Assembly: GCA_018398815.1 (NCBI GenBank)
Contig: CM031601.1
Location: 36,877,113-36,941,112, forward strand
Direction: 5' to 3'
Length of the DNA stretch: 64,000 nucleotides
Source of the DNA: Conus ventricosus
Lineage: Eukaryota; Mollusca; Gastropoda; Neogastropoda; Conidae
Both the position numbers and the translations under genes were made by a program. A model generated the notes under the pieces. The model saw nothing but the letters and a program-made list of their open reading frames with translations. It made no database searches and was not told where the DNA came from. Positions 2,932-63,764 of the stretch are shown here, one piece after another. The stretch's first letter is position 1. Each line of letters starts with the position of its first letter.

Positions 2932-3085
2932 CTGCTATCCTGACTGTGCCCGAGATGGAGGTGTCATCAGTGTAAGGATGGGGGGACTCCTGGGTCACAG
3001 GGGAGGAGGTGGAACGGGCGTACTCACTGTCACTGGCCACATCTTCCAGCTCCGTGACACAAAGCTCTAGCAGCATCTCTGAGAC
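2932..3085 (-). CDS. HERC2: HERC2 exon h: LLELCVTELED block, acceptor seeds minisatellite
   Basis: Acceptor CTTCTTTAG; donor ATAGCAG followed by GTAAAATT. It reads VSEMLLELCVTELEDVASDS, then ESPHPYTDDTSISGTVRIAG, nearly identical to the HERC2 stretch before the conserved beta-sandwich-like region (GTVKIPGAEGLRVEFD in vertebrates). Phase is 0 in and 1 out. The first ~28 exon bases together with the preceding acceptor are repeated, diverged, as a tandem array through the upstream intron to about 6475. The following exons lie beyond the left edge. Confidence 0.94.
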
Positions 3086-3385
3086 CTAAAGAAGAAGGGT
3101 TAGGGTATTACACACAACTCAAACTGCATTTCTAAGACCTAATGAAGCAAGGTTAGGGGTATTATGCACAGTTCCAGCAGCATCTTTGCCACTCAGTGGT
3201 CTTTTGCAACTCCAGCAGCATCCCTGAAACCTATAGAGGTAGGGTCAGGGTATTACAAATAGCTCAGCAGCATTTCTGAGACATAGTAAGGTTGATCAGC
3301 AGTATCACAGACAGCTCCAATAGCATCTCTGAGACTTACAGAGGCAGGGTCAAAAATACTACAGTTCCAGCAGCAATTAAAAAAA
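3086..3385 (-). repeat. ~54-bp minisatellite seeded by HERC2 exon h acceptor, segment 1
   Basis: About six diverged units follow immediately upstream of exon h. In transcript sense each resembles TAATACCCTGACCCT, then CCTCTATAG (acceptor-like), then GTCTCAGAGATGCTGCTGG, which is the start of exon h. The unit therefore carries branch-point-like CTGAC, a pyrimidine tract, the AG and nearly 30 exon bases. The array is broken at 3386 by a CR1/L2-like retrotransposon and resumes at 4745. Confidence 0.9.
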
Positions 3386-4744
3386 AAAATGTATGGGTTT
3401 TATATGGCGCAATTCTTGGGATCAACTCATTGCGCTCACACACACACTCAAACACTCGCACTGACATATGTTCCCACACACACACGCACACCCACCAACA
3501 CAGGCGCACTTATCAAGTTCATCGGTTCAAGCGTAAATAATACAGCTTTGCATGCAGTACATAAAAAGTCAGGTTAGAATAATAGACACAGCATTTAGAT
3601 ATTATGGTTGAAGAAGACTTTCCTAAAGAAGTATGTTTTTAACTCTGACTTGAATTTAGATAATGTGGGCAGGTCACGTAAGCTGTCAGGAAGAGAATTC
3701 CAAAGAGTGGGCGCACTAAAGCTATATGCTATCTCACCGACTGTCTTTAACGAGCGCCTAGGAATTTTCAGAAGTTTTTGAGAAGATGAGAAGATGAGCG
3801 AAAAGACCGAGAAGTTTGATAGGTGGACAGAGAAGCAGAAAGATACTGTGGGAGTGTCCCATCATTTGAACTGCCATCGATATTTGATGGGAAGCCAGTG
3901 GAGTTCATGTAACAAAGGTGTAATATGCTCATTTTTATGCTTTTTGAGAACAAGCCGAGCTGCACTGTTTTGCACTCTTTGTAATCGTGCAAGCTGTTCT
4001 GAAGGAAGTCCTGCTAACACAGAGTTAGAGTAGTCTAGTCGGGACATTACCATGGCGGTGATGAGTCCGATTGTTGCCTGTGTTGAGAGGTAAGACCAGA
4101 TAAAAGCAATACATCGAAATTCCAGGAAGCATGCACAACAAACATTAGATATTTGGTTCTGCATAGACAGGGTTTGATCAGTGCTGACACCTAAATATTT
4201 CACCGACTCTTTGAAAGGTAAAACAACACTATCAATTTCTGCCGACTCAGCCACAACCATCTTGACATGAGAGGAGGTACCAACAGCCATGATCTTGGTT
4301 TTGTCACTATTCAGCATGAGTTTGTTGCTGGTCATCCAGACTTTTACATCCCTAAAACATGCGGTAATATCTGATTGAGCACCTTGAAAATTGCTGGTAG
4401 TTGCGCTCTTAGAGAGTTCAGTGTCAACTGCAAATTTGTGGAAGTCACAGCCATGGGCAGAAATAACGTCAGATAAGGGCTGAGAATAAAGGGTAAAAAG
4501 AACAGGTCCAAGGACAGAGCCCTGGGGAACACCATATAGAAGAGGAGAAGGGGATGATTTAGCACCATTAATGATTACCATCTGTGTCCTGTCAGAAAGG
4601 TATGATGTGAACCATTTGAGAACCATATTGTCAAATCCAAAAGTAACCTTAAGTCTCTTGAGTAGGATAGAGTGGTCAAGAGTATCAAAAGCAGCACTGA
4701 GGTATAAGGGAGACCAGTTTATCATCTGATTTACAAAGCAGGCA
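3386..4744 (-). mobile_element. CR1/L2-like non-LTR retrotransposon, 5'-truncated and dead
   Basis: The reverse translation from 4725 gives an RT domain: LSAAFDTLDHSILLKRL, GVPQGSVLGPVLFTLYS, then FAVDTEL where the catalytic YADD is expected, and the thumb/C-terminal HELHWLPIKYR motif of CR1/L2-group elements. The catalytic box is degraded (FAVD) and there is no endonuclease, so the copy is inactive. The region 3400-3860 is its 3' untranslated part with a GGCGCAATTC / TTGCGCTC pair. It inserted into the exon-h acceptor minisatellite. Confidence 0.85.
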
Positions 4745-5174
4745 GTCTAAGACACTCAGAACTGCAGTCTCTGACACAGAGAGGCTGCAATACACAGAGA
4801 GGCTAGGTCTGATGTATCCACACAGGTCCAGCAGCATGTTTGAGACCCAAACAGGCAGGGTCAGATGCATTACATACAGATCCAGCAAGTCTACTTCAGA
4901 AGCAGGATCAGAGGTATCACTCACAGCTCCAGCAGCACCTCTAAAACCTATAAAGGCAGGGTCAGGGATATTACACACAGCTCCTGCTGCATTTCTGGGG
5001 TCTATAGAGTCAGAGTTTGAGGTATTATACAAGCTCCAGTAGCATCTCTGACATCTACACCGGCAGAATCTGGGTATTACACTCAGCACCCAGCAGCAAT
5101 AGGATGATGTAGGATCAGAGGTATAAAACACAGCTCTGACAGCATCACTGACAGGATTAGGGGTATTACTCACC
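4745..5174 (-). repeat. ~54-bp splice-acceptor minisatellite, segment 2
   Basis: This continues the exon-h acceptor array, with eight or so units recognisable on the plus strand by the recurring CTCCAGCAGCATCTCTGA, then GGCAGGGTCAGGGTATTACA. It lies between the CR1/L2-like insertion (3386-4744) and an I-type fragment (5175-6128), both of which inserted into a pre-existing array. Confidence 0.88.
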
Positions 5175-6128
5175 CTATATTGCTTATAGCCCAGCTGACT
5201 GCAAAGGGTCATATCAGGGCTGTCATCGCATTGAAATCAGCTCAAGCTTTAAGGAGAATAAAATTATAAAAAAAACAAAAAACATCTCATTCACACAACC
5301 CTTTAAACTGAAATACACCTAAAAACACACTGGAAATTTTGTTTAAAATCCTCCTTCTATCTAATCTTAGATCAGATGAAAAATGTTAATCTCTTTCAGA
5401 AATTCAAAGATCACATCAGGTGGGACATCTCTGAACAAGGTTTTCACAGAGTCTGCAGTAAAATGTATATATGTCTCACATCATGCAAGTCCCAACACTC
5501 TAAATGAATATGTTTTACAGTGGGTTTTTCACCTTTTAAAAGATAAGAATGAATGTAAAAGGAGTGGCCTGTATGCAAACGGTGTAAGACTGTTTCTTCT
5601 TTAAGGCCGTCTCGGGAACATGGTAAAAACTCTTTCAGGTTTGGATGGATTTTAAATAGTTTGTTATCTGTCTGCAAGTTCCATTTCTCTCGCCAGAGGT
5701 CTTTGGCGTAAGCCTGGGTTTTGTGTTTCAGTCAGTGTGAGGGAGAGGCAATCTGCTAAATTCTTTCTTTGTGGCACTCTTGGCAAGTTGATCAACCAAC
5801 TCATTGACTCGAATGCCCACATAGCTGGGAACCCAAGCAAAAACTATGTTGTATTCATCTGATTTCAGGGAGGTGTACAATTTGAACGATTTCAGCAGTT
5901 GAGGGTGCTTAAGGTTATGGGTGGCAATGGTCTCTAAAGCAGAAAGGGAGTCTGACAAAATGAGGAATTCTTTATGTTTGCCTTTAGAGACCATTTCAAG
6001 AACCAGGACCAAGGCTGTCAACTCAGCAGTGTAGATGGAGCTGTCAGTGGGAATGTGTTTAGATCATCTCTGAGAAGGACCTGTTGCACAATACACACCA
6101 GAGACAACCTCCTCCTCAGACTTTGTAT
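5175..6128 (-). mobile_element. I-type non-LTR retrotransposon, diverged 3' fragment
   Basis: Starts with the family's 3' end (TTGCTTATAGCCCAGC on the plus strand) and extends into the RNase H domain: reverse translation of 6021-5728 shows FLILSDSLSALETI and NIVFAWVPSYVGIRVNELVD. The usual WVPGHVGI has become WVPSYVGI, so the key His is gone. It is older and more diverged than the copies at 23764, 39095 and 48877. It splits the exon-h acceptor minisatellite. Confidence 0.85.
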
Positions 6129-6475
6129 TACACACAGCTCCAGCAGTAACTGCATTCCCTTCAAAGGTAAGGTCAAGCATATTACACATATCCTGAGCAG
6201 CATCTGCCTTTTCTACAAGGAGAGGATCAGGGACATTACACACATCTCCAGGACCTATATAGAGAAAGGGTCAGGGATATTACATACAGCTCCAGAAGCA
6301 TCTTTGATGCCCACAGAGACAGGATTATGGTATTACACATGGGCTCAAGCAAGATCTCTGATATCTACAGGGATATGATCAGAGGTATTACACGCAGCAT
6401 CTCTGATACCTACTGATGTAGCATCTGGGATATTACACATAGCTCACAGACTAAGGAGGTTACACAGACCCATCA
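6129..6475 (-). repeat. ~54-bp splice-acceptor minisatellite, segment 3
   Basis: About seven more diverged units of the exon-h acceptor array, for example ATTACACACAGCTCCAGCAG and GAGGATCAGGGACATTACAC on the plus strand. A last isolated half-unit (GGATCAGAGATATTACACAC) appears at 8538-8558, so the original array may have reached that far before the TG-rich tract grew. Confidence 0.85.
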
Positions 6476-12949: not shown

Positions 12950-12997
12950 CCTACCTCACCCACCCCCCACCCACCCCCCCCCACCCCCCACCCCCCC

Positions 12998-13028
<31 letters not shown>

Positions 13029-13160
13029 ACCCCCCACCCCCCCCCCCCACCCCCCCCCCCCCCCACCCCCCACCCCCCCCCCCCCCTCCCCCACCCACCC
13101 CAACCCCACCCCCACCCCACCCACCCCCCCCCCACCCCACCCCCCACCCCCACCCCCAAT
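12950..13160. repeat. C-rich low-complexity tract
   Basis: About 210 bases of C with spaced A (CCCCCAC-type) on the plus strand. The G-rich complement has many G runs able to form quadruplexes in HERC2 transcripts. Pro- and Gly-rich open frames here are artefacts. Confidence 0.95.
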
Positions 13161-18392: not shown

Positions 18393-18597
18393 TGGGTCCA
18401 AGGGATCAGTCAGAGACACAGTGATGTCCCCATGGTCCACCACTGCTGAACTGTGTGTACTGTCCACCATGCTGGATTCCATGGAGGCTGAAGGCACTGC
18501 AGCAGGGGGCACTACTGCTGGCAGCACAGACATGCTGGATTCTGACATGGCTGGGACTGCCATTGGTTCTGGCATCAGCGCTTTCACCACAGCAGCT
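18393..18597 (-). CDS. HERC2: HERC2 exon f: variable linker
   Basis: Acceptor CTGACACCAG after a pyrimidine-rich stretch; donor GACCCA followed by GTGAGT. The first base completes the Arg codon from exon e, giving ...SYAR then AAVVKALMPEPMAVP, aligned with the YARDAVVGALMP region of vertebrate HERC2. The rest is a low-conservation Ser/Pro/Ala-rich stretch ending TDPLDP, consistent with a disordered linker. Phase is 1 base in and 0 out. Identification rests on the conserved start, the matching phases and its order between exons e and g. Confidence 0.88.
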
Positions 18598-18808
18598 CTG
18601 GTGTCAGAACAAGAGTGAAAAACTGTTAAAGGACGCACACAGGGCAGTGTGTGTCTGCTTTTTGTAGTAATAGGGCAAGTTTATCTCTATCATTATTGTT
18701 CACTCTGTAGAAGGCATATACAAAAAAAATCATTTGTCTGTTTTTTGTACTGTGTATTAAACAGGCACTGGTTTGGTCTCTATTCTGTATGTCAATTTTA
18801 GTTTTGGT

Positions 18809-18924
<116 letters not shown>

Positions 18925-19489
18925 TAGAACAGAACAGAATACATTTTATTGTCATGAAACCTCAGGGTTTATGAGACACAATATGGTTATCACAGAAGAA
19001 CAAAACAGTCATACACAAATTTCCCAAACAATGACTGGGCATTCTCCATAGTCATTAATTGGCTTGGAACATTAAGACATTGTATGCCTTTCATTTAAAC
19101 ATTTCTGTTGGCATCAAACTTTTCACAATGATCAAGAAAATGAACTTCGTCTTCCAATATGTTACAACAATTGCAAAGTCTTTGTTCTCAAAATATCTGT
19201 AGATATTGTCCTTTTTCTATCTTTAAGTCATGGGCGCTTATCCGAAGTCTTGTTAAGGCTTGTCTGTGCCTCCCATCTGCAACAGTGATTAAATATTTGT
19301 CCGTTTCATATTCTTTTACAATACTGTTGTAAAAATTAAGTTTAGATGAGTTGTTTTTCTTGTCTTTCCAATATCGAATATATTCATTTTCTAACTTTTC
19401 AGATGTTACAACTTTTAGTCTCTGGATATCGAATGTAAACCGATTTGTCCAAACATGGCCCATATTCATATTTATCAATATCTCTTTAA

Positions 19490-21335
19490 CCCGCTGAGTG
19501 CGATGGGCCACCATCGTGGCTTTACCGCCCGAGTGCGATGGGCCACAATCGTGGCTCAAACGAGAACCGTTATACCACCGCCGCTAAACATCCGGATTGA
19601 TCAGTTCACATGACTTGCTGGTATCCATTGTGCACCGGCAAGCCATGTCAGTCGGTTATCTCCAAGTTTTTCGTGCGTTTTGACTGAAATAATGAGTGAA
19701 TCAGCGACCGAGTTTGAGCAGGAGTTGTGTGGAAGTGGCACGAGTGAAGAATCAGTTGCCGGAGGCAGTAGTAACGAAAGCGAAGCAGGTGAGTAGATAA
19801 ACTTTATTTTGTTTGTCGACTGATGGAACACTTGCTGTGTGCGGTTATTGGTTATTTTACATTTGTTGGTCCGCCACATGAAGGAAGGGGGGGATGGAGG
19901 GGAGAGAGAGAGAGATAATGTTGCTTATAGCCCAGCCGACCGCAGAGGGCCACATCAGGGCTGGGGGATGGGGGGGGGCAGGGTACATGGTTACTTACAG
20001 GAGTTGCCTGATCAAACAAGAAGATCGTTTGTGGGTGATTATAGGTGTTTTGAAAGCACTTTAGAGATGAATAAAAGTGGTGATTTGAAGAGAATAATTT
20101 ATAACTTTTGTTTGTTTTGCTTGTTTTTTTTTTAGTTTGGAAACAGTGTGGGCGTGTCACGAGTGGGCATGTCTCCAATGAAAGCTATAGCCCTTCCCCT
20201 TCCTTATATGCTAGTGATTCAGATTTTATTTTTATTTATGATTTTATGCATGACTTCATTTTTAATAGAATGAATAAGTAATGTTGTTCATATTTTTTTC
20301 TTTCTGAAAATCAGACTGATCAGTAGAAACTGAGTTAAGCTCTCTGTAACAACTCTTGCACCATTATGAAACAATGAAATGAACAGAAGACTTAGGATAT
20401 ATGTTTTCTTGTGTGATCCAGAATCTGGAAGCACTACTGCAGAGGAGAGTGATGCTGAGAGAGGAGCTCAAGAAAGAGGAACTGTGCTGCTGGCCATCCT
20501 ACTTGTGTGCGCTCTGGCTGGGAATGTTCTGGATGCAACATGGGACTCTGCCCTGAGTGCTTTTCAGCCTTCTACAGAAGACAAGGCCCTAACTTTGTTC
20601 TGTGTCTTTCAAGGACATGTTCTTCTTGTTTTCTCTCAAGTTTCAAGTGTTTTGACATTCAAGCAGGAAAACTGTGGTGTTTCAAACAATGTGACTGACG
20701 TTTTGGATTACCTTTTCGCCAATGTTCTGGAGTACACTGTGAAGAATATCTTCAGCTGCCATCAGGGTACTGTCTTGTAATTATTTTTTTCAGATTCCTC
20801 ATTATCTCTAGTTTACAAAAACATATAGTTTTACCTATCTAGCTTCAAGATAAGCCTGCACAAACCCCATTTCCTTATATAGTGAAATTTGATTGTCCGG
20901 ATGCTGAATTATAGGTACATCATTTGAGGCACAATTCATTATACATAGCTCAAGTCAAGAGAATTATCATCTTTCCCATGTTTCCAGCACATATTTGTCT
21001 TCATTTTATCTCCAGTCTGAAGTGTTTAGGTGGTACAGAAGAAAAACTGTGTCTCTCCTAACATCTGACTTACTTTTCAAATAACTTTTTCAGAAATTTT
21101 CTCTGCTTATATTTTGAGGTCAGTCTCCAAGTGGGTACCACCCACAGTATTTTCAGTTATTTCACTAGATTCTACAACATCTCTAGTTTCTAAATATGTA
21201 TAGGTTTGCATATCTAGTGTAAATAATATGTATGCAGAAGCCAAATTCTCAAGTGTGGTGTGTGACGAGTTTCCTGTCCTAGATTTTAACTACATTTCTT
21301 TGAAGTTTAAATTGATATACAGAGCACTGTGAGGG
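19490..21335 (+). mobile_element. piggyBac-type DNA transposon, internally deleted, TTAA-flanked
   Basis: Bounded by TTAA at 19486-19489 and 21336-21339. The ends start CCCGCTGAGTGCG on the left and, in reverse, CCCTCACAGTGC on the right. The left end has two subterminal CGATGGGCCAC(C/A)ATCGTGGC hairpins. The transposase start is visible at 19692 (MSESATEFEQELCGSGTSEE, then a GGTGAG donor). A C-terminal Cys finger SGWECSGCNMGLCPECFSAF, typical of piggyBac transposases, is encoded near 20511. The DDD core is missing, so it cannot move itself. A tiny I-type 3' end (19914-19965) sits inside. It inserted into the RTE-like ORF. Confidence 0.87.
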
Positions 21336-21582
21336 TTAACAAATGTCAACCAAGGATCATTTTCGTCTTCTTGATGATGCATGCATTTATACATTCTAAG
21401 GGCAAGAGAATTTTCTGACAAATCAAGAACGTGTAGCCAATAGGATATTGTGTGACATATCATTTTTAAACTTACCGGAAATCTTACTGGAAATCTGCCT
21501 ATTTATCCTAATACACTGAACTTTTGTTAACGCCAAGAATTTGTTTACAAAATTTGATAAGTACTTTTTTGTGTGCAAATTA

Positions 21583-21726
21583 TATCAATCTATGGAGCAG
21601 AAGTATGGTTCTCCTACCAAACCAAACTGACTCCTTTGAATTAAAAATCAAATAGCATTTTTATTTCAAAGGAGTCAGTTTGTTTGGTTTGGTAGGGGAA
21701 CCATGCTTCTGCTCCATAGACTGATA
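21583..21726. repeat. ~60-bp inverted repeat (fold-back)
   Basis: The arm at 21583-21642 is the reverse complement, with few differences, of 21664-21726, with a ~21-base AT-rich loop. Both arms encode the YGAEAWFPYQTKQTDS stretch of the RTE-like RT in opposite directions. It is a local inverted duplication inside a dead element. Confidence 0.92.
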
Positions 21727-23020
21727 TTGGAGTCATTAATGCATCATATAATTTGAATATTGTATTCATATTAAATTTTGTATTTCTAAAGGTCCTGTGT
21801 AGAGTATGTAATGCTTTGCTCACTTGTTTACTTAAGTGTTCCTGTGCTTGCAATAGGCATCCACTCTTGTGGAAAATAACTCCCAAATATTTGTATTCAT
21901 TAGCTGTGTTGTCACCACAGTAAAAATAGCTTGGTATTTTAGTGCTTGATTTTGTAAAAATACCAACTTTTGTTTCTTTGTTTATTCTTAATCCCCTACA
22001 CTGGCAATTGTCATGTAAATTATGTAGTTTTTGTTGGAAACCAGTTTTTGTAAGGAAAGAATAATTAGATCATCTGCATATAACAAACATGGAATCTTAG
22101 AAGCAGTGACGTCATCAAATTTGGGTGAATTATTATTATCCATATACCCTACAATGTCATTTACGAAGACATTAAATAAAGTAGGGCTGAGAGCATTTCC
22201 TTGATGTACTCCCTTATGGACAATGATTTCTTTACTCAAAAGGCCATGTGATCTTGTTAGAATGGTAGCATTCGTATATGTATCTTTAATTCTATCAAAA
22301 TAGTTTCCAGTTATACCCATTCTGTTCAGTTTCAACAGCATTGCATCATGCCCTACATTATCAAAGGCCTTTTCAAAATTGACAAAGCATCTGTATAATC
22401 TGCCATTTTTAGTTTTTAATACTTCTTTTACAATTTTTTTAGGATAAAAATGTGATCAACTGTTCTGTGATTCTTTCGAAATCCTGCCTACTCTTTGACT
22501 AAAAGTTGATTTTGTTCAAGGTAATCCGTCATTCTGCTATTGAAAATCGTACAAAACACTTTTCCTAATGTACTGTTAAGTGTTATTCCCCAATAACTGT
22601 TTGGTTCTCCTGGATTACCAATTTTGTCTAATGGGATATTCAAACCTTTTTTACCCACGAATCTGGATAAATTCCTCTCTTAAAAATAAGGTTAAACATT
22701 TTTTGAATGATGTGTATGGTAATTGGAAGACTAGTCTTAATCATCTCGTTAGTTATGCCATACATTCCTGGTGATTTGTTTTTTGTTTTTTTTTGGTGCA
22801 GGTAAGCTTTTTTTATTTCATCAGATAATATAGGCAAATTAATGTTTGATAACATGGTAGAGTTCATTTGTCTATTTTTTAGTTAACATCTACTTTTTTC
22901 CTTTTGGTCTTGGTCTACATTGACTTCCTTCCCAATCATTTTTTTTTTTCAAGATGTGAAATCCATTTTGAAGCATTTAATAGTTTACTTGATGAACACT
23001 GTTGGTATTTTCACGAATCT

Positions 23021-23024
<4 letters not shown>

Positions 23025-23086
<62 letters not shown>
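23025..23086. repeat. (GT)n microsatellite
   Basis: Pure GT run. The following 23087-23630 is intron without recognised features; a C-rich tract lies at 23634-23672. Confidence 0.95.
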
Positions 23087-23763
23087 ATGAGATCACCTGG
23101 CACATGAAACTAGCAGATCTGTTTACCCTTAACTGCTATTGGTGCACCTTTCAACTGAAAGAAGTCTATTTTCTAAAATGTGTGTGTACATAAATTCTAA
23201 ATGTTTGTATAAGCAGGGGGGAGCAGGGTGGATGTCATCAAAATTTTAGTTAAAACAGTGGGGGAGGGGGTTGTTTTCACCACTTAGCAGGGAGTAGATG
23301 GATACCTGATCTCCCAGTAACTATAACAGAGTTAATTTCTCCAAATACAAATTACCTTTAAACCCGATTCATAAGCATACTTTGGCATAACCTCATGCTC
23401 TCTCACCATTTTGTTGCTGTTGTTATTTCAGGGCCTGTGGTCCACATTATTGTTCTAACCTATTGGCATGTTGTCAATGACTGACACAACCAGACATGAT
23501 TTGGCATGCAAGAGTTAGTGGGAGTTGTCTCTATTTGATCAAACCACACTAAGACAACACAATGGTCACAGAACTTAAATGCAATTACTGCTAAAGAAGT
23601 TCATATCTAGCCTTTTTCTCAATTTCTTTTCGTCCCCCCCCCCCCCCCCCACCCCCCCCACCCCCCACCCCCGATTCATTGTACTAATCATAGTTTCACC
23701 AAATGTGTGAACACAATACTGCAAAATCATATGGATGAACAGTTTTGAACTGAACATGGATGA

Positions 23764-24405
23764 ATACATAAGATAAGATAAGATAATGTTGCTTATAGCC
23801 CAGCCGACCGCAAAGGGCCACATCAGGGCTGTCACCACGTTAAAATCAACTCACCAGTCATTAAAAAAAACAACAACAAAAAAAACTTTCACACATCTCA
23901 TTAAATGACATCATCTAGAAACGCACCAGAAATTGCATAAAAAATCTTTCTTCCGTAAAATCTTAAATCAGATGAAAAATGTTAATCTCTCTCAAAAACT
24001 CAAGGATCACATCAGGCGGGACATCCCTGAACAGGATCTTCATGGACTCCGCTGTAAAATGTTTGTGTCTCACATCGTGCAAGTCCCAACACTCTAAAAG
24101 AACATGTTTCATTGTGAGTGGCGCATGACATGGAATACACCACGGAGCTTCTTCACTCTTTAAAAGGTAAGAATGGGTAAAATACGAATGGCCGGTGTGC
24201 AGCCGGCACAGAACCGTTTCCTCTTTACGACCTCCCGACGGAGATGGGAGGAAGTCCTTAAGGTTTGGACGGATCTGAAAGAGTTTATTATCCGTCTGTG
24301 TGTTCCAATCCTCCTGCCAGAGGTCTCTCACATAATCGTTAATTTTGGGTTTCACATCTGAGCAGGGGATATAAATGTTGGACAGTTTCTCTCTTGTGGC
24401 GTTCT
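23764..24405 (-). mobile_element. I-type non-LTR retrotransposon, 5'-truncated copy
   Basis: Begins with the (GATAA)n tail and 3' end at 23764-23870, and its C-terminal ORF2 runs to NATREKLSNIYIPCSDVKPK near 24400, then breaks off abruptly into TGTGTGTGG. The C-terminal Cys/His motif CRLHTGHSYFTHSYLLKSE and CHAPLTMKHVLLECW is intact. About 95% like the copy at 48877. Confidence 0.92.
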
Positions 24406-24600
24406 TGTGTGTGTGGTAGTTACTTGGCAATGGGAAAAGTAACCTGAACCAGAGATGGGAATAGCGATTCATAAAGGGGTCCGAAACATTTGGCTGGATT
24501 CTAGGAGCTGCCTATTTATGCATTTCACAAAAAATGACTCCTGCAGCTGAATTTCAAAGTAAGGATGGAAAATTCTCTTGTCTGCTGGATGCATGGTTGG

Positions 24601-27600
24601 CTGAGTGAGCATCACCTGGCATAGGAAATGTGACATAGATATATAGGTAGCTGTGTGAGTATGATCTTGGCATAGGAAATGTGTCAAGGATATATAGGTA
24701 ACTGTGTGAGTATGATCTTGGCATAGGAAATGTGAAATAGATATATAGGTAGCTGTGTGAGTATGATCTTGGCATAGGAAATGTGACATAGATATATAGG
24801 TAACTGTGTGAGTATAATCTGGCATAGGAAATGTGACATAGATATATAGGTAGCTGTGTGAGTATGATCTTGGCATAGGAAATGTGACATAGATATATAG
24901 GTAGCTGTGCGAGTATAATCTGGCATAGGAAATGTGACATAGATATATAGGTAACTGTGTGAGTATGATCTTGGCATAGGAAATGTGACATAGATATATA
25001 GGTAACTGTGTGAGTATAATCTGGCATAGGAAATGTGACATAGATATATAGGTAGCTGTGTGAGTATGATCTTGGCATAGGAAATGTGACATAGATATAT
25101 AGGTAGCTGTGCGAGTATAATCTGGCATAGGAAATGTGACATGGATATGCTGGTGATTGTGTGAGGGTCATCTATCATAGGAAATGTGACATGGATGTGT
25201 GGCTGGCTGTGTGTGAGGGTCATCTGTCATAGGAAATGTGACATAGATGTGTAGATGGCAGTTATAACAATCACCTGTCACAGAAAATGTGACATGGATG
25301 TGTGGCTGGCTGTGTGCGAGGGTCATCTGTCATAGGAAATGCGATATGGGTGTGCGGGCAATATGTTTGACTATCACTGTAATAGGAAATGTGACATGGA
25401 TGCGTAGGTGGCAGTTAAGACCACCGCCTGTCACAAGAAATGGGACATGGATGTGTGGCTGGCTGTGTGTGACTGTCACCTGTCACAGGAAATGGGACAT
25501 GGATGTGTGAATGGCAGTACCTAGCATAAGAAATATGACCAGGATGTGTGGGTAGCTGTGTGCGACAGTACCTGGCGTAAGAAATATGACAAGGATGTGT
25601 GGGTAGCTGTGTATGACAGTACCTGGCATAAGAAATATGACAAGGATGTGCGGGTAGCTGTGTGTGACAGCACCTGGCATAGGAAATATGACAAGGATGT
25701 GTGGGTAGCTGTGTGTGACAGCACCTGGCATAGGAAATATGACAAGGATGTGTGGGTAGCTGTGTGTGACAGTACCTGGCATAGGAAATATGACAAGGAT
25801 GTGTGGGTAGCTGTGTGCGACAGCACCTTGCATAAGAAATATGACAAGGATGTGTGGATAGTTGTGTGTGACAGCACCTGGCATAAGAAATATGATAAGG
25901 ATGTGTGGATAGTTGCGTTCGACAGCACCTTGCATAAGAAATATGACAAGGATGTGTGGATAGTTGTGTGTGACAGCACCTGGCATAAGAAATATGACCA
26001 GGATGTGTGGATAGTTGTGTGTGACAGCACCTTGGCATAAGAAATATGACAAGGATGTGTGGGTAGTTGTGTGTGCAGCACCTGGCATAAGAAATATGAC
26101 CAGGATGTGTGGATAGTTGTGTATGACAGCACCTGGCATAAAAAATATGACCAGATGTGTGGGTAGCTGTGTGTGACAGTACCTGGCATAGGAAATATGA
26201 CAAGGATGTGTGCGTAGCTGTCTAATACAGTACCTGGCATAGGACATATGACCAGGATGTGTGGGTAGCTGTGTGTGACAATACCTGGCATACGAAATAT
26301 GACGAGGATGTGTGGGTAGCTGTGTGTGACAGTACCTGGCATAGGAAATATGACAAGGATGTGTGGGCAGCTGTGTGTGACAGCACCTTGCATAAGAAAA
26401 ATGATGAGGATGTGTGGACAGCCATGTGTGACAGCACCTGGCATAAGAAATATAACAAGGATGTGTGGGTAGCTGTGTGTGACAGCACCTGGCATGGAAA
26501 TATGACAAGGATGTGTGGATAGCTGTGTGTGACAGCACCTGGCACAGGAAATATGAAGCATGTGTGGTAGCTGTGTGTGACAGTACCTGGCATTGGAATA
26601 TGACCAGGATGTGTGGATAGCTGTGTGTGGGCAGTACTTGGTATAGGAAATACAACCAGGATGTGTGGATAGCTTGTGTGGCAGTACTGGCATAGGAAAT
26701 ATGACAAGGGTGTGTGGATAGCTGTGTGTGACAGTACTTGGTATAGGGGAAAAATTTACCCGGATCTGTGGATAGCTGTGGTTTACAGCACCTGGGATAA
26801 GAAATACGATGAGGATGTGTGGATAGCTGTGTGTGACAGTACCTGGCATAAGAAATATGACAAGGATGTGTGGATAGCTGTGTGTGACAGTACCTGGCAT
26901 AAGAAATATGACGAGGATGTGTGGATAGCTGTGTGTGACAGTACCTGGCATAAGAAATATGACAAGGATGTGTGGATAGCTGTGTGTGACAGCACCTGGC
27001 ATAGGAAAATATGACAAGGATGTGTGGATAGCCTTGTGTGACAGTACCTGGCATAGGAAATATGACAAGGATGTGTGGGTAGCTGTGTGTGACAGCACCT
27101 GGCATAAGAAATATGAGAGGATGTGTGGATAGCTGTGTGTGACAGTACATGGCATAGGAATATGACAAGGATGTGTGGATAGTTGTGTTGGCAGTACCTG
27201 GCATAGGTAATATGATGAGGATATGTGGATAGCTGTGTGTGACAGTACTGGCATAGGAAATAGGACAAGGATGTGTGGGTAGCTGTGTGTGACAGTACCT
27301 GGCATAGGAAATATGACAAGGATGTGTGGGTAGCTGTGTGTGACAGTACCTGGCACAGGAAATATGACAAGGATGTGTGGATAGTTGTGTGTGACAGTTA
27401 CTGGCATAGGAAATATGACAAGGATGTGTGGATAGCTGTGTGTGACAGTACCTGGCATAGGAAATATGACAAGGATGTGTGGGTAGCTGTGTGTGACAGT
27501 AAACCCGGCATAGGAAATATGACAAGGATGTGTGGATAGCTGTGTGTGACAGTACCTGGCATAAGAAATATGACAAGGATGTGTGGGTAGCTGTGTGTGG

Positions 27601-29391
27601 ACAGTACCTGGCATAGGAAATATGACAAGGATGTGTGGGTAGCTGTGTGCGACAGCACCTTGAATAAGAAATATGACAAGGATGTGTGGATAGTTGTGTG
27701 CGACAGCACCTGGCATAAGAAATATGACAAGGATGTGTGGATAGTTGCGTGCGACAGCACCTTGCATAAAAAATATAACAAGGATGTGTGGATAGTTGTG
27801 TGTGACAGCACCTGGCATAAGAATATGCAGGATGTGTGGATAGCTGTGGTGTGACAGTACCTGGCATAGGAAATATGACCAGGATCTGTGGATAGCTGTG
27901 TGTGACAGCACTTGGCATAGAATACGACGAGGATGTGTGGATAGCTGTGTGTGACAGTACCTGGCATAAGAAATATGACAAGGATGTGTGGGTAGTTGTG
28001 TTGACAGCACCTGGCATAAGAAATATGACCAGGATGTGTGGATAGTTGTGTGTGACAGCACTGGCATAAGAAAATATGACCAGGATGTGTGGGTAGCTGT
28101 GTGTGACAGTACCTGGCATAGGAATATGACCCGGATGTGTGCGTAGCTGTGTGTGACAGTACCTGGCATAGGAAATATGACAAGGATGTGTGGGTAGCTG
28201 TGTGTGACAGTACCTTGCATACGAAATATGACCAGGATGTGGGGGTAGCTGTGCATGACAGTAACCTTACATAGGAAATATGATGAGGATGTGTGGGTAA
28301 ACTTTTGTGTGACAGTACCTGGCATATGGAAATATGACAAGGATGTGTGGGCAGCTGTGTGTGACAGCACCTGGCATAAGAAAAAATGACGAGGTGTGTG
28401 GGGTAGCTGTGTGTGACAGCACCTGGCATAGGAAATATGATGAGGATGTGTGGGTAGCTGTGTGTGACAGCACCTGGCATAAGAAATATGACAAGGATGT
28501 GTGGGTCGCTGTGTGTGACAGCACCTGGCATAGGAAATATGACAAGGATGTGTGGACAGCCATGTGTGACAGCACCTGGCATAAGAATTATAACAAGGAT
28601 GTGTGGGTCGCTGTGTGTGACAGCACCTGGCACAGGAAATATGACAAGGATGTGTGGATAGCTGTGTGTGGACAGCACCTGGCACAGGAAATATGACAAG
28701 CATGTGTGGATAGCTGTGTGTGACAGTACCTGGCATAGGAAATATGACCAGGATCTGTGGATAGCTGTGTGTGACAGTACTTGGTATAGGAAATGTGACC
28801 AGGATGTGTGGATAGCTGTGTGTGACAGTACCCGGCATAGGAAATATATAAGGATGTGTGGATAGCTGTGTGTGACAGTACTTGGTATAGGAAATATGAC
28901 CAGGATTGTGGATAGCTGTGTGTGACAGCACCTGGCATAAGAAATTACGACGAGGATGTGTGGATAGCTGTGTATGACAGTACCTGGCATAGGAAATATG
29001 GGCAAGGATGTGTGGATAGTTGTGTGTGACAGCACCTGGCATAGGAAATATGACAAGGATTTTGTGGATAGTTTGTGTGTGCAGTACCTGGCATAGGAAA
29101 TATGACGAGGATGTGTGGATAGCTGTGTGTGACAGTACCTGGATAGGAAATATGACAAGGATGTGTGGGTAGCTGTGTGTGACAGTACCTGGCATAGGAA
29201 ATTGACAAGGATGTGTGGATAGCTGTGTGTGACAGTACCTGGCATAGGAAATATGACAAGGATGTGTGGATAGCTGTGTGTGACACTACCCGGCATACGA
29301 AATATGACAAGGATGAGTGGATAGCTGTGTGTGACAGTACCTGGCATAGGAAATATGACAAGGATGTGTGGGTAGCTGTGTGTGACAGTAC
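24601..29391 (-). repeat. 51-bp minisatellite seeded by HERC2 exon e donor
   Basis: About 4.8 kb of 51-bp tandem units (about 90 copies by division) fills the intron from the donor of exon e. In transcript sense each proximal unit contains ATATTTCCTATGCCAG, which is the end of exon e, then GTACTGTCAC, which is its intron start. Three blocks are visible. The proximal block (about 25500-29391, ~76 units) keeps CAG-GT donors, with GTACTG and GTGCTG variants. A middle block (about 25130-25500) has TATGACAG-type changes. The distal block (24601-25130) lacks the GT and shows alternating 51- and 50-bp units, a ~101-bp higher-order repeat. As 51 is divisible by three, minus-strand frames of up to ~1,200 codons run through it; these are repeat artefacts, not genes, unless read through from exon e. 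Scattered one-base indels may be real or assembly noise. Confidence 0.97.
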
Positions 29392-29569
29392 CTGGCATAG
29401 GAAATATGCAGAGCTGTCAGCACATGACTGAGGGCACGCTTCTTTTCCAAGGTGGAGTCCAGTGACAAGATGATTTTGGACAGGGAAGGTCGGCTCTGCT
29501 TGTTCTGCCCTGCCCCCTCTCCACCACTGGATGAATAGGAAGCCTCCTCTGTTGAACCATCATTGATAC
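29392..29569 (-). CDS. HERC2: HERC2 exon e: linker after RLD2, seeds 51-bp minisatellite
   Basis: Acceptor CTGTGGCAG followed by GTATCAATG; donor TATGCCAG followed by GTACTG. The translation passes through a Ser/Gly-rich spacer into RPSLSKIILSLDSTLEKKR and ALSHVLTALHISYAR, matching the conserved RPSL-KI-LSLD and ALSH-LTAL-I-YAR blocks of HERC2. Phase is 2 bases in and 2 bases out; the split Arg codon (AG plus A) is completed by exon f. The last 17 exon bases plus the donor form part of the unit of the 4.8-kb tandem array that begins at this donor. Reading continues in frame past the donor for three repeat copies before a stop, so use of the second copy's donor would add exactly 17 residues. 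Confidence 0.93.
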
Positions 29570-57550: not shown

Positions 57551-58170
57551 AAGTGAAAAAGCTAGTGGTGGGAGCAAGAATGCAACACACAAACAAACAA
57601 AATCCAGGGACCAGAAAGAGGCACTTCTGAAACTATGCCCTTTCAAAGAAGGGAATCCATCAATCTGATAATGGGAGCCTAGCTGGTTCAGGAGGGAAGA
57701 AGGCCAAGAGACTAACTCCAACAGAATCGTTTCTGTAGGATGAAGATAGTCACATCCATGTTCCTTGTAGCATTTAAAACTAAGGGTCCTTGGGACCCTC
57801 TGTTGAAAAATCTGAGGGTTGTCAGGTGAAATCTAAGGATCCCTATTATCAAAATAAAAATTTGAAGAAACTCTTAATTGTACAATAATGCTACAGCAAC
57901 AGACTAGTCCATTCTGCTACACAATACCACGAACACAGTATACACAAACATATATTAACGTAAGCATTCACTAAGCTGCTTTCATACCAAAAGCATCAGA
58001 AGCAAACAGAACTTGCTTAACTCCTATTTTTGAGCCCCTCATCCCCCACCCCTACTCCTCTCTGCCCCGAAACTGTCCATAGTCAGTATGCTGACACACT
58101 TACAAATAAAAAGGTAATGAAGAAAATTACCAGTGAACTGAGACAGAATACATTTGAATGAAGGTGTACA

Positions 58171-58283
58171 TGGCCATTGTTGATGACAAACAGTACAGAT
58201 GTAATGGGGAAAAAAAATAACAGAGAACACAGACATTCAATGTGTGATGAAGTATGTACCTGGCCATTGTCGGTGACACACAG
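58171..58283 (-). repeat. 90-bp duplication spanning HERC2 exon c donor
   Basis: The plus-strand string TGGCCATTGTCGGTGACACA (exon c end, 58261) recurs as TGGCCATTGTTGATGACAAA at 58171, exactly 90 bp away, and the neighbouring intron bases also align (CATACTTCATCA against CACCTTCATTCA in transcript sense). It is a two-copy tandem duplication covering exon end plus donor; the downstream copy has ATGTAC where the real donor has AGGTAC. Confidence 0.75.
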
Positions 58284-62449: not shown

Positions 62450-63587
62450 TCATGTGTGTCAAAACCCGTCAATGATCTGGTCAATGATTTGTCCGGGTTT
62501 GTCTGTCTCAACACCTATAACTGATCTATTTAGATTTAATTGTTCCATTATAGAGCTGTTGGGTTTAGTAGTCCAATCACCGACATACCTGGGTTTTGTT
62601 GCCCCACCATTGTTATGACTGTCTTTATTTGTCTCATCACTAGGCTCTTCAGGCTTCTTTAATCTCATTATCAACCTGTTTGGGTTTTGCTGTCCCATTA
62701 CTTATGTGTCTAGGTTAAGTTGTCCCATCACAGAGCTATTTAGGTTAAGCTGTCCCGTCATTCAGTTGTCTGAATTTAGCTGCCCCATGATCGAGCTGTT
62801 CTGGGTTAACTGTCCAATCACTGAGCTCTTTGGATTTTCTTGTGCGTGTTTGGGTTGGGTTACTGTCCTGTTTGGTTTTTGTTATCCCATCACTTGCCTG
62901 TTTAGCATTTGTTGCCCCATCACTGACCTGGGCTGGGCCACAACTGACCTGGCTGAGTTTAGTAGAATCATGACTGACTGATTTGGCTTAGATGAACCAT
63001 CACTGACCTGTTTTGGTTTCGTTGTCCTGTCACTGTCCTGTTTGGGTTTGGTCAAATCATCATTGACCTGTTTCTATTAAGTTGTTCGGATTTAAGCTGG
63101 GTAGTGTTGCCAAACCTGTCTGGGGGTTGTTGTCCCAGTACCGACCCATTTGGGTTAAGCTAAACCACCACTGATCTGTTGGGTTTTGTTGTCTCATCAC
63201 AGACCAGTTTAGGTTTTTGCTGGGTAGTCTTGTCTTATCATTACCCTGGGTGATGTTGTCCAATCACCAACCTGTTTGAGCTTCAGCTGGGTGATTTTGT
63301 CCTACCGCTGACCTGTTTTGGTGTAGCTGGGGGACGTTGTCCCATCACAGACTTGTATGCGTTTTGTTAACCCATCACTTACCTGTTCAGGTTTGTTGTC
63401 CCACCTCTGCCCTGTCTGGATTTTGTTATCCCATCACTTAACTGTTTAGAATTGTTTGTCCCATCACTGGCCTGTCTGGGTTTTGCTGTCCTGTCCTTTA
63501 CCTGTTTAGGATTTGTTGTCCCATCACTCACCTGATAAGGTTTTGTTGTCCTATCAATGACAGTTTTGGGTGTTGTTGTCCACTGAC
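62450..63587 (-). repeat. ~30-bp minisatellite seeded by HERC2 exon a donor
   Basis: About 1.1 kb of ~30-bp units begins at the donor of exon a. In transcript sense the unit is AAACCCAAACAG then GTCAGTGATGGGACAACA; exon a ends GAAACCTAAACAG with intron GTCAGTGG. Some units (63090-63340) are longer and keep more exon sequence, for example CACCCAGCTGAAGCTCAAAC against exon ACACAGCTGAAACCTAAAC. Many units keep CAG-GT, including GTAAGTG-like forms. The array fades into unrelated sequence near 62450. Confidence 0.92.
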
Positions 63588-63764
63588 CTGTTTAGGTTTC
63601 AGCTGTGTGGTATTATCCCCGTGACCCAGACGACCATAGTCTCCCAATCCCCAGGTGTACAACTCCCATTGGATGTGATGGCCGCACTGTGAGAACTGCC
63701 ACATGCGATGTCACGCACACGCTTGGACTTGAGTGCTTCAATCATCCGTGGGGTTTCGCAGTTC
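63588..63764 (-). CDS. HERC2: HERC2 exon a: RLD2 propeller blade
   Basis: Acceptor GACATAG before GAACTGC; donor AAACAG followed by GTCAGTG. The translation contains the RCC1-blade signatures [12 protein letters not shown], then [17 protein letters not shown] and DNTTQLKPK, as in the second RCC1-like domain of animal HERC2. The exon enters in phase (one base completes a codon) and ends on a full codon (CAG). Reading requires one extra G at 63665-63667, where three C are present on the plus strand and four are needed to keep the frame between ITSNG and ELYTWG. The exon is squeezed between two minisatellites, one on each side, both touching its splice sites. The previous exon lies beyond the right edge. 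Confidence 0.9.

What the first reader, a model, noticed from the sequence alone, without database searches (positions are those of the whole stretch)
24601..29569. A 4.8-kb minisatellite grown from a splice donor: every proximal unit carries the end of HERC2 exon e plus its GT
Seen directly: exon e ends ATATTTCCTATGCCAG and its intron starts GTACTGTCAC; the 51-bp unit contains the same string, in the same orientation, ~76 times in the proximal block, and the array starts at the exon without spacer. The intron thus offers dozens of copies of one 5' splice site. Reading frame stays open through the first copies and 51 = 3 x 17, so choosing donor copy 2 would insert 17 residues (YCHTQLPTHPCHISYAR) into HERC2 without a frameshift. 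A human precedent for a donor-bearing minisatellite exists in interferon-induced gene 6-16; an array this large in HERC2 is new to me.
Basis: partly seen in the sequence, partly recalled or inferred. Interest (0 to 1): 0.93.

Follow-up and report, generated by a model that had tools for sequence, protein, structure and literature searches.

The report
Exon edge cloned 95 times
In a snail's HERC2 gene the last 17 letters of one exon, together with the adjoining splice signal, recur in a row of 95 units inside the next intron, 79 of them with the signal's core letters intact; the row most likely grew by tandem duplication of that exon edge, and the cell is predicted to cut at the first copy and ignore the rest.

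Summary
In HERC2 of a caenogastropod snail (minus strand), the 10.8-kb intron after exon e opens with a 95-unit, 51-bp minisatellite (24590-29408). Each unit repeats the exon's last 17 nt plus the intron's first 34; 75 of 76 proximal units keep the 5' splice-site GT. The exon tail (..HISYAR) is conserved in homologues, so the exon came first and the array was copied from it.

It is not a new kind of thing: amphioxus 'mirages' are tandem duplications of exon-intron boundaries, and by sequence this array is one. It is not alone: HERC2 has a second donor mirage (63588) and an acceptor mirage (3085) in this window, and 3 of 37 sampled myosin exon matches show clear ones (65 bp x7, 37 bp x15, 43 bp x4).

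Junctions are not evidently targeted: they lie in repeats about as often as random intron points (7 of 44 against 180 of 1500). Best reading: neutral capture of an exon edge by this genome's active minisatellite turnover, with the exon-proximal splice site used.

The parts
29392..29569 (-). HERC2 exon e (178 nt), codes (G)INDGSTEEASYSSSGGEGAGQNKQSRPSLSKIILSLDSTLEKKRALSHVLTALHISYA(R); ends CAG|GT in phase 2
   Evidence: tblastn with recalled human HERC2; homologues
29392..29408 (-). last 17 exon bases CATATTTCCTATGCCAG, the exonic third of the unit (unit 1)
25538..29408 (-). proximal block: 76 units of 51 bp; GT intact in 75, AGGT in 63
25139..25537 (-). intermediate block: 8 diverged units; GT in 3
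24633..25138 (-). distal block: 10 units in two variants, mostly alternating (101-bp higher-order repeat by TRF); GT in 0
24590..24632 (-). last partial unit (no. 95), CACATTTCCTATGCCAGGTGATG.., continuing into unique intron; probable remnant of the original intron start
18598..29391 (-). intron between exons e and f, 10,794 nt; AGGT 67 times in the array (13.9/kb), 12 times in the rest (2.0/kb)
29286..29288 (-). first in-frame TAG, after donor 3: use of donors 1-3 keeps the frame open, donors 4 and beyond do not
18393..18597 (-). HERC2 exon f (AAVVKALMPEP..), acceptor CACCAG; placed by reading frame and homologues, not hit by the tblastn
63588..63764 (-). HERC2 exon whose donor heads the second array (ends CCTAAACAG|GTCAGT)
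62470..63596 (-). second donor mirage: about 38 degenerate 30-bp units, consensus CCCAAACAG|GTCAGTGATGGGACAACAAAA; GT in 18 of 39 segments
2932..3085 (-). HERC2 exon whose acceptor is repeated upstream (TTTAG|GTCTCAGAGATGCTGCTAGAGCT, VSEMLLEL)
3086..6450 (-). acceptor mirage: irregularly spaced, degenerate copies of polypyrimidine-AG + exon start, interrupted by retroelement-like stretches (judged by eye)
58130..58198 (-). one extra copy of the exon-58260 donor region

Best explanation
In the HERC2 gene of a caenogastropod snail, a 95-unit, 51-bp minisatellite repeats the last 17 bases of exon e together with its 5' splice site (GT intact in 79 of 95 units), and it most likely arose as a 'mirage': a tandem duplication of the exon-intron boundary that then expanded into the intron, with splicing predicted to stay at the exon-proximal copy. 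Shown: the unit's content, the conserved exon end, the diverged distal end, the sister mirages in HERC2 and in myosin genes, and no excess of repeats at junctions over random intron points. Inferred: a first duplication spanned the junction. It was nearly neutral because one intact exon-end and donor still abuts the exon body, while further copies are removed with the intron. Unequal exchange or slippage then multiplied the unit. Purifying selection protects only the copy that is read as exon. Predicted: exon definition picks the copy that gives the shortest exon; mis-choice of donor 2 or 3 would add 17 or 34 residues, and of donor 4 or later would hit the TAG.
For: Units start at the exon tail with no spacer; the 76 proximal units average 93% identity to consensus. 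The last unit (GTGATGCTCACTCAGCCAACCATGCATCC..) runs into unique intron, as in-situ duplication predicts. The exon end is ancestral: among 23 homologues (hand-picked from the 120 listed, all with 65% or more of the query covered) typical forms at the same place are ALQIIYSR and ALQIMYAR, and the apparently unspliced P0018 and P0019 leave the conserved frame right after YAR. Exons d-e-f match this locus only, apart from one weak match on C14 (45% over 49 residues), and the unit was found nowhere else. Same design elsewhere: HERC2 donor 63588 and acceptor 3085; myosin L065 (49 exon nt + 16 intron nt, 65 bp x7 including the exon's own copy, first five identical), L050 (37 bp x15), L062 (43 bp x4). 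Amphioxus mirages have this anatomy and are reported not to disturb splicing (PMC3087553, section read; PMC3902484, passage read). Junctions are in repeat context about as often as random intron points, 7/44 against 180/1500, so no special attraction is needed.
Against: Arrays do sit close to exons more than random placement allows when exon overlap is forbidden: 5 of 27 within 40 bp against 0.36 expected. That could mean active seeding at exon edges, although capture plus purifying selection explains it too. Unit 1 is not the obvious root of the array: divergence from consensus does not rise with distance from the exon in the proximal block (Spearman 0.13, p 0.26). No transcript data were available. 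The exon e donor is weak (U1 duplex -7.1 kcal/mol; 15 of 25 HERC2 donors pair better), and 33 of 76 proximal units (unit 1 included) pair at least as well, so unique use of copy 1 is not guaranteed by sequence.
Confidence: 0.85

Rival explanations
1. The array is functional: several donor copies are used, giving a ladder of HERC2 isoforms with 0, 17 or 34 extra residues, or a tunable poison product beyond donor 3.
For: Copies 1-3 keep the frame open; 75 of 76 proximal units keep GT; 33 of 76 proximal units, unit 1 included, equal or beat the real donor in U1 pairing.
Against: The unit consensus is stop-free in all three sense frames, so openness is uninformative. Sister arrays have 65-, 37- and 43-bp units, so multiples of three are not required. 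The exonic part (.929) and intronic part (.928) of proximal units are equally conserved. In amphioxus, mirages are reported not to yield aberrant mRNAs.
Confidence: 0.08
2. The AG|GT copies act as dual-specific or recursive splice sites, so that the 10.8-kb intron is removed in steps or units are spliced to one another.
For: 67 AGGT in the array against 12 in the rest of the intron. In human data AGGT sites can serve as donor and acceptor, and introns spliced at such sites are enriched in tandem repeats such as UBC (PMC10809524, passages read).
Against: By eye the unit has only a short pyrimidine run before the CAG, and the donor half is weak. No RNA data.
Confidence: 0.05
3. Splice junctions actively seed minisatellites, for example through transcription- or splicing-linked breaks at exon edges.
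For: 5 of 27 arrays lie within 40 bp of a HERC2 exon against 0.36 expected; arrays occur at both donors and acceptors.
Against: Junctions sit in repeat context at about the same rate as random intron points; strong-donor triplets are fewer than their reversed control genome-wide, 2177 against 6903 (one control motif).
Confidence: 0.12
4. Assembly artefact, or an unrelated minisatellite that only happens to share AGGT.
For: Two HERC2 exons (63.7k and 59.6k) change frame inside, probably by single-G length differences in G-runs, so the assembly may have some indel error.
Against: 17 exon bases are shared; units are individually distinct; the exon end is conserved in homologues; arrays of the same design exist on other contigs.
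Confidence: 0.02

Closest known systems
Amphioxus 'mirage' minisatellites (Adh3, globins BflGb6/BflGb9, troponin C; PGBD5 duplications likened to them)
   Same: [quoted passage not shown] PMC3902484 passage).
   Different: Reported units 10-72 bp (Adh3) and 150-160 bp with 6 and 3 copies in two haplotypes (BflGb6). Here a mollusc, 95 units and 4.8 kb. Splicing and length variation were examined there, not here.
Human interferon-inducible 6-16 (IFI6) donor-bearing minisatellite
   Same: A short tandem repeat bearing 5' splice sites at an exon end (recalled from memory; search listed papers that I did not open).
   Different: Human gene; unit and copy number not checked here; no claim of relation.
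Dual-specific splice sites in tandem-repeat genes (human UBC)
   Same: AGGT motifs recurring with the repeat unit, offering both 5' and 3' splice sites (PMC10809524, passages).
   Different: In UBC the repeat is coding ubiquitin and use is shown; here the repeat is intronic and use is unknown.
Intron gain by tandem duplication of AGGT-bearing segments
   Same: Duplication of a splice-signal segment within a gene (PMC4974935 and PMC2891723, search listing only; model described in PMC3087553).
   Different: No new intron position is seen here; the intron is at an apparently old position.

Membership tests
mirage minisatellite | tandem repeat unit contains both exon end/start and adjoining intron | tested here: met
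   17 exon + 34 intron nt per unit
mirage minisatellite | many units carry the AG/GT splice signal | tested here: met
   AGGT in 63 of 76 proximal units, GT in 75 of 76; GT in 3 of 8, 0 of 10 and 1 of 1 further out
mirage minisatellite | array abuts an authentic, conserved exon | tested here: met
mirage minisatellite | occurs at 5' and 3' boundaries in the same genome | tested here: met
   acceptors 3085, L050, L062
mirage minisatellite | boundary units excluded from homogenisation | tested here: inconclusive
   distal units diverge strongly, the exon-side unit does not
mirage minisatellite | regular splicing undisturbed | not testable with these tools
   no transcripts
mirage minisatellite | length instability between haplotypes or somatically | not testable with these tools
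   one assembly only
6-16 (IFI6) type donor minisatellite | homology to the human locus or use of repeated donors in mRNA | not tested
   recalled precedent; no sequence compared
dual-specific / recursive splice sites | same AGGT used as donor and as acceptor | not testable with these tools
   motif present, use unknown

The most novel reading that the evidence does not exclude
Mirages are a genome-wide class in this snail: its minisatellite turnover has cloned thousands of donor and acceptor sites in place (six clear multi-copy arrays among 118 sampled exon edges, plus weaker ones), so its spliceosomes routinely face ladders of near-identical splice sites and keep to the exon-proximal one. 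The HERC2 array, with 75 intact GTs in 76 proximal units, is then a natural test, on an unusual scale, of how a spliceosome chooses among equal sites, and a reservoir from which exons can lengthen in 17-residue steps.
Probability: 0.5. Interest if true: 0.78.

Novelty: new member of a known kind. Interest (0 to 1): 0.6.

Why it matters
In the papers opened here, boundary-spanning minisatellites are described from amphioxus only (PMC3087553, PMC3902484). Here they recur in a mollusc, in two unrelated gene families, at both kinds of splice site. An array of dozens of near-identical donors next to one real exon lets one ask directly how the spliceosome ranks equal sites by position. It also suggests a route by which exon ends, new isoforms or new introns could be drawn from repeated splice signals. 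For annotation, gene finders and read mappers are likely to misplace exon ends in such loci.

Tried and rejected
Targeting of splice donors by minisatellites: a whole-genome count of three AGGTAAGT with gaps of 15-45 bases gave 1103+1074, the reversed motif 3234+3669, so no excess; one control motif only, and large arrays inflate both counts. Junction test against random intron points: no excess. TRF on the first 17 myosin exon matches showed no boundary-spanning minisatellite; low-complexity tracts in L041 and L042 begin within 10 bp of the match. The alignment test on all 37 matches (74 edges, taken at the match ends, which only approximate the splice sites) gave 9 edges at score 20 or more: L030 is a CA microsatellite; L038, L052 and L061 are weak (20-23); L044 and L060 show a degenerate copy each (30, 32; further copies not looked for); L050, L062 and L065 are clear arrays. 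A first HERC2 junction scan (its acceptor list differs in a few positions) used narrower windows and did not show acceptors 127883 and 212043, seen. In one search donors 142064 (19 against null maximum 17), 71911 (15 against 14) and 2932 (16 against 15) are marginal and not counted; acceptor 190619 is an uncertain splice position. Selection for or against decoys: GT is kept in 75 of 76 proximal units but many other positions are equally constant; loss in older units looks like age. Greater conservation of the exon-derived part was seen in the 8 intermediate (.809 against .735) and 10 distal units (.906 against .629), not in the proximal block (.929 against .928); outer units are not independent, so nothing is built on it. 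A solved-structure search with the exon peptide gave 0 matches.
Full report
What is there. The window is part of contig C7 of a 3.5-Gb assembly held as G000. The gene is the HERC2 orthologue on the minus strand: a tblastn with human HERC2 letters recalled from memory places 26 exons in collinear order over the window plus 200 kb upstream; exon f was added by reading frame. A COX1 copy in the same assembly is 97-98% identical to the best caenogastropod COX1 records, so the animal is taken to be a caenogastropod snail. In a whole-genome protein search exons d, e and f match this locus; the only other match is on C14, 45% identical over 49 residues.

The array. Exon e (29569-29392) ends CATATTTCCTATGCCAG, and the intron begins GTACTGTCACACACAGC. 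A wrap-around alignment divides 29408-24590 into 95 units. Units 1-76 are a uniform 51-bp block; units 77-84 are intermediate; units 85-94 are of two, mostly alternating, variants; unit 95 is partial and passes into unique intron. In the proximal block GT is kept in 75 of 76 units, AGGT in 63 of 76, the whole exon tail plus GT in 22 of 76. In the older blocks GT is kept in 3 of 8, 0 of 10 and 1 of 1, so 79 of 95 in all. The exact exon-tail-plus-GT 19-mer occurs 20 times on the minus strand. The intron is 10,794 nt; its AGGT density is 13.9 per kb in the array and 2.0 per kb in the rest.

Which came first. I aligned the spliced d-e-f peptide with 23 homologous proteins, hand-picked from the 120 listed among those that cover 65% or more of the query. 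The stretch ending exon e is conserved: I131 and R135 are nearly invariant, and typical forms are ALQIIYSR-DAVV and ALQIMYAR. Two apparently unspliced predictions, P0018 and P0019, leave the conserved frame right after YAR, as expected if an intron lies at the same place. The exon end, and probably its intron, therefore predate the array. The last, strongly diverged unit continues into the intron, which is what duplication in place predicts.

Reading frame. Donor 3 would insert two units. Anything later meets the TAG at 29288-29286. The unit consensus has no stop in any of the three sense frames, so an open frame says nothing. The exon e donor is of middling to weak U1 complementarity (-7.1 kcal/mol; 15 of 25 HERC2 donors are better), and 33 of 76 proximal units, unit 1 included, are at least as good. 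Sequence alone does not single out copy 1 except by position.

Not alone. A scan of 25 HERC2 donors and the 19 acceptors that I could place, for copies of the junction in the adjacent 2 kb (30 resampled introns each), found best scores at least 6 above the null maximum at donors 29392 (66 against 25), 63588 (34/18) and 58260 (35/19) and at acceptors 3085 (45/17), 190619 (28/18, splice position uncertain), 127883 (26/20) and 212043 (25/19). Donor 63588 opens about 38 degenerate 30-bp units, CCCAAACAG|GTCAGTGATGGGACAACAAAA. Acceptor 3085 is preceded over 3.4 kb by irregularly spaced copies of its polypyrimidine-AG and of the exon start that codes VSEMLLEL, broken up by retroelement-like stretches (the retroelements judged by eye). 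To see whether this is peculiar to HERC2 I took 37 of the 69 myosin-head exon matches, down the list with some skipped, with 500-bp flanks. Nine of 74 edges passed, against 6 of 44 HERC2 junctions under the same rule. Three are unmistakable (counts include the exon's own copy): L065, a 65-bp unit with 49 exon bases (..CGTIESVNICRKGFPAR) and 16 intron bases, seven copies, the first five identical; L050, fifteen copies, about 37 bp apart, of TGTCAG|RTGTT up to the exon MFDRELCCKQL; L062, four 43-bp copies of TTGACAG|AACAACA up to NNSFEQF. Units of 65, 37 and 43 bp are not multiples of three, so 51 = 3 x 17 need not mean anything. Counting only these three and HERC2's 29392, 63588 and 3085, six of 118 sampled edges carry clear multi-copy arrays.

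Why it happens. Tandem arrays (TRF, period 15 or more, 3 copies or more) cover 8.1% of the 256.5 kb examined. After microsatellite-like ones are dropped, and with exon overlap above 20 bp forbidden, 5 of 27 arrays lie within 40 bp of an exon against 0.36 expected (p 0.0005, the floor of 2000 permutations). But splice junctions lie in repeat-bearing context about as often as random intron points, 7 of 44 against 180 of 1500 at score 24, Fisher p 0.28. The simplest joint reading is that arrays arise irrespective of exon edges. Those that include an edge survive only when one terminal copy keeps the exon intact; that is a mirage. Genome-wide, triplets of the strong donor AGGTAAGT are not in excess of the reversed motif.

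What is known. Mirages were described in amphioxus: minisatellite-like duplications of 5' or 3' boundaries in Adh3 (10-72-bp units) and globins, with RT-PCR suggesting no interference with regular splicing and with length instability (PMC3087553, section 16 read). A second paper adds troponin C and likens PGBD5 duplications to them (PMC3902484, one passage read). Sequence-level defining features are met here; splicing behaviour and instability could not be tested. Work on dual-specific AGGT sites in repeat genes (PMC10809524, passages) makes use of the copies a fair question. Of PMC2812944, on human internal tandem repeats, I saw only the outline; it may hold related cases. In the listings of searches (titles and starts of abstracts) I saw no boundary-spanning minisatellite in a mollusc or in HERC2; few of those papers were opened, and the library lacks most subscription papers.

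Verdict. The claim to a new kind is not, since mirages exist. What looks new is scale and spread: a 95-unit mirage in a snail gene and, in the same genome, several more in two gene families. How the cell chooses among copies is inferred, not shown.

Noticed in passing
window 62470-63596 and 3086-6450: Two further boundary-spanning arrays in HERC2: a 30-bp donor array and an irregular acceptor array.
   Followed up: yes
L065, L050, L062 (myosin-head exons on other contigs): Textbook donor (65 bp x7) and acceptor (37 bp x15; 43 bp x4) mirages outside HERC2.
   Followed up: yes
window about 63665 and about 59613: The frame changes inside two otherwise conserved HERC2 exons, probably by single-G length differences in G-runs; probably assembly indels, unproven.
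   Followed up: partly
plus coordinates 83518-83903, 127918-128212, 212068-213485 of window + upstream (window continued by L009-L028): Minisatellites ending 25-35 bp upstream of HERC2 exons, where branch point and pyrimidine tract would lie; the 127.9k unit resembles the acceptor itself.
   Followed up: partly
window 24633-25138: In the 10 distal units the exon-derived third matches the proximal consensus far better than the intron-derived part (.906 against .629); not so in the proximal block.
   Followed up: partly
window 12957-13157: 200-bp C-rich tract with scattered A.
   Followed up: no
G000:C13:52756042-52757382: Long copy of mitochondrial COX1 inside a 98.6-Mb contig, open under the invertebrate mitochondrial code.
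   Followed up: partly
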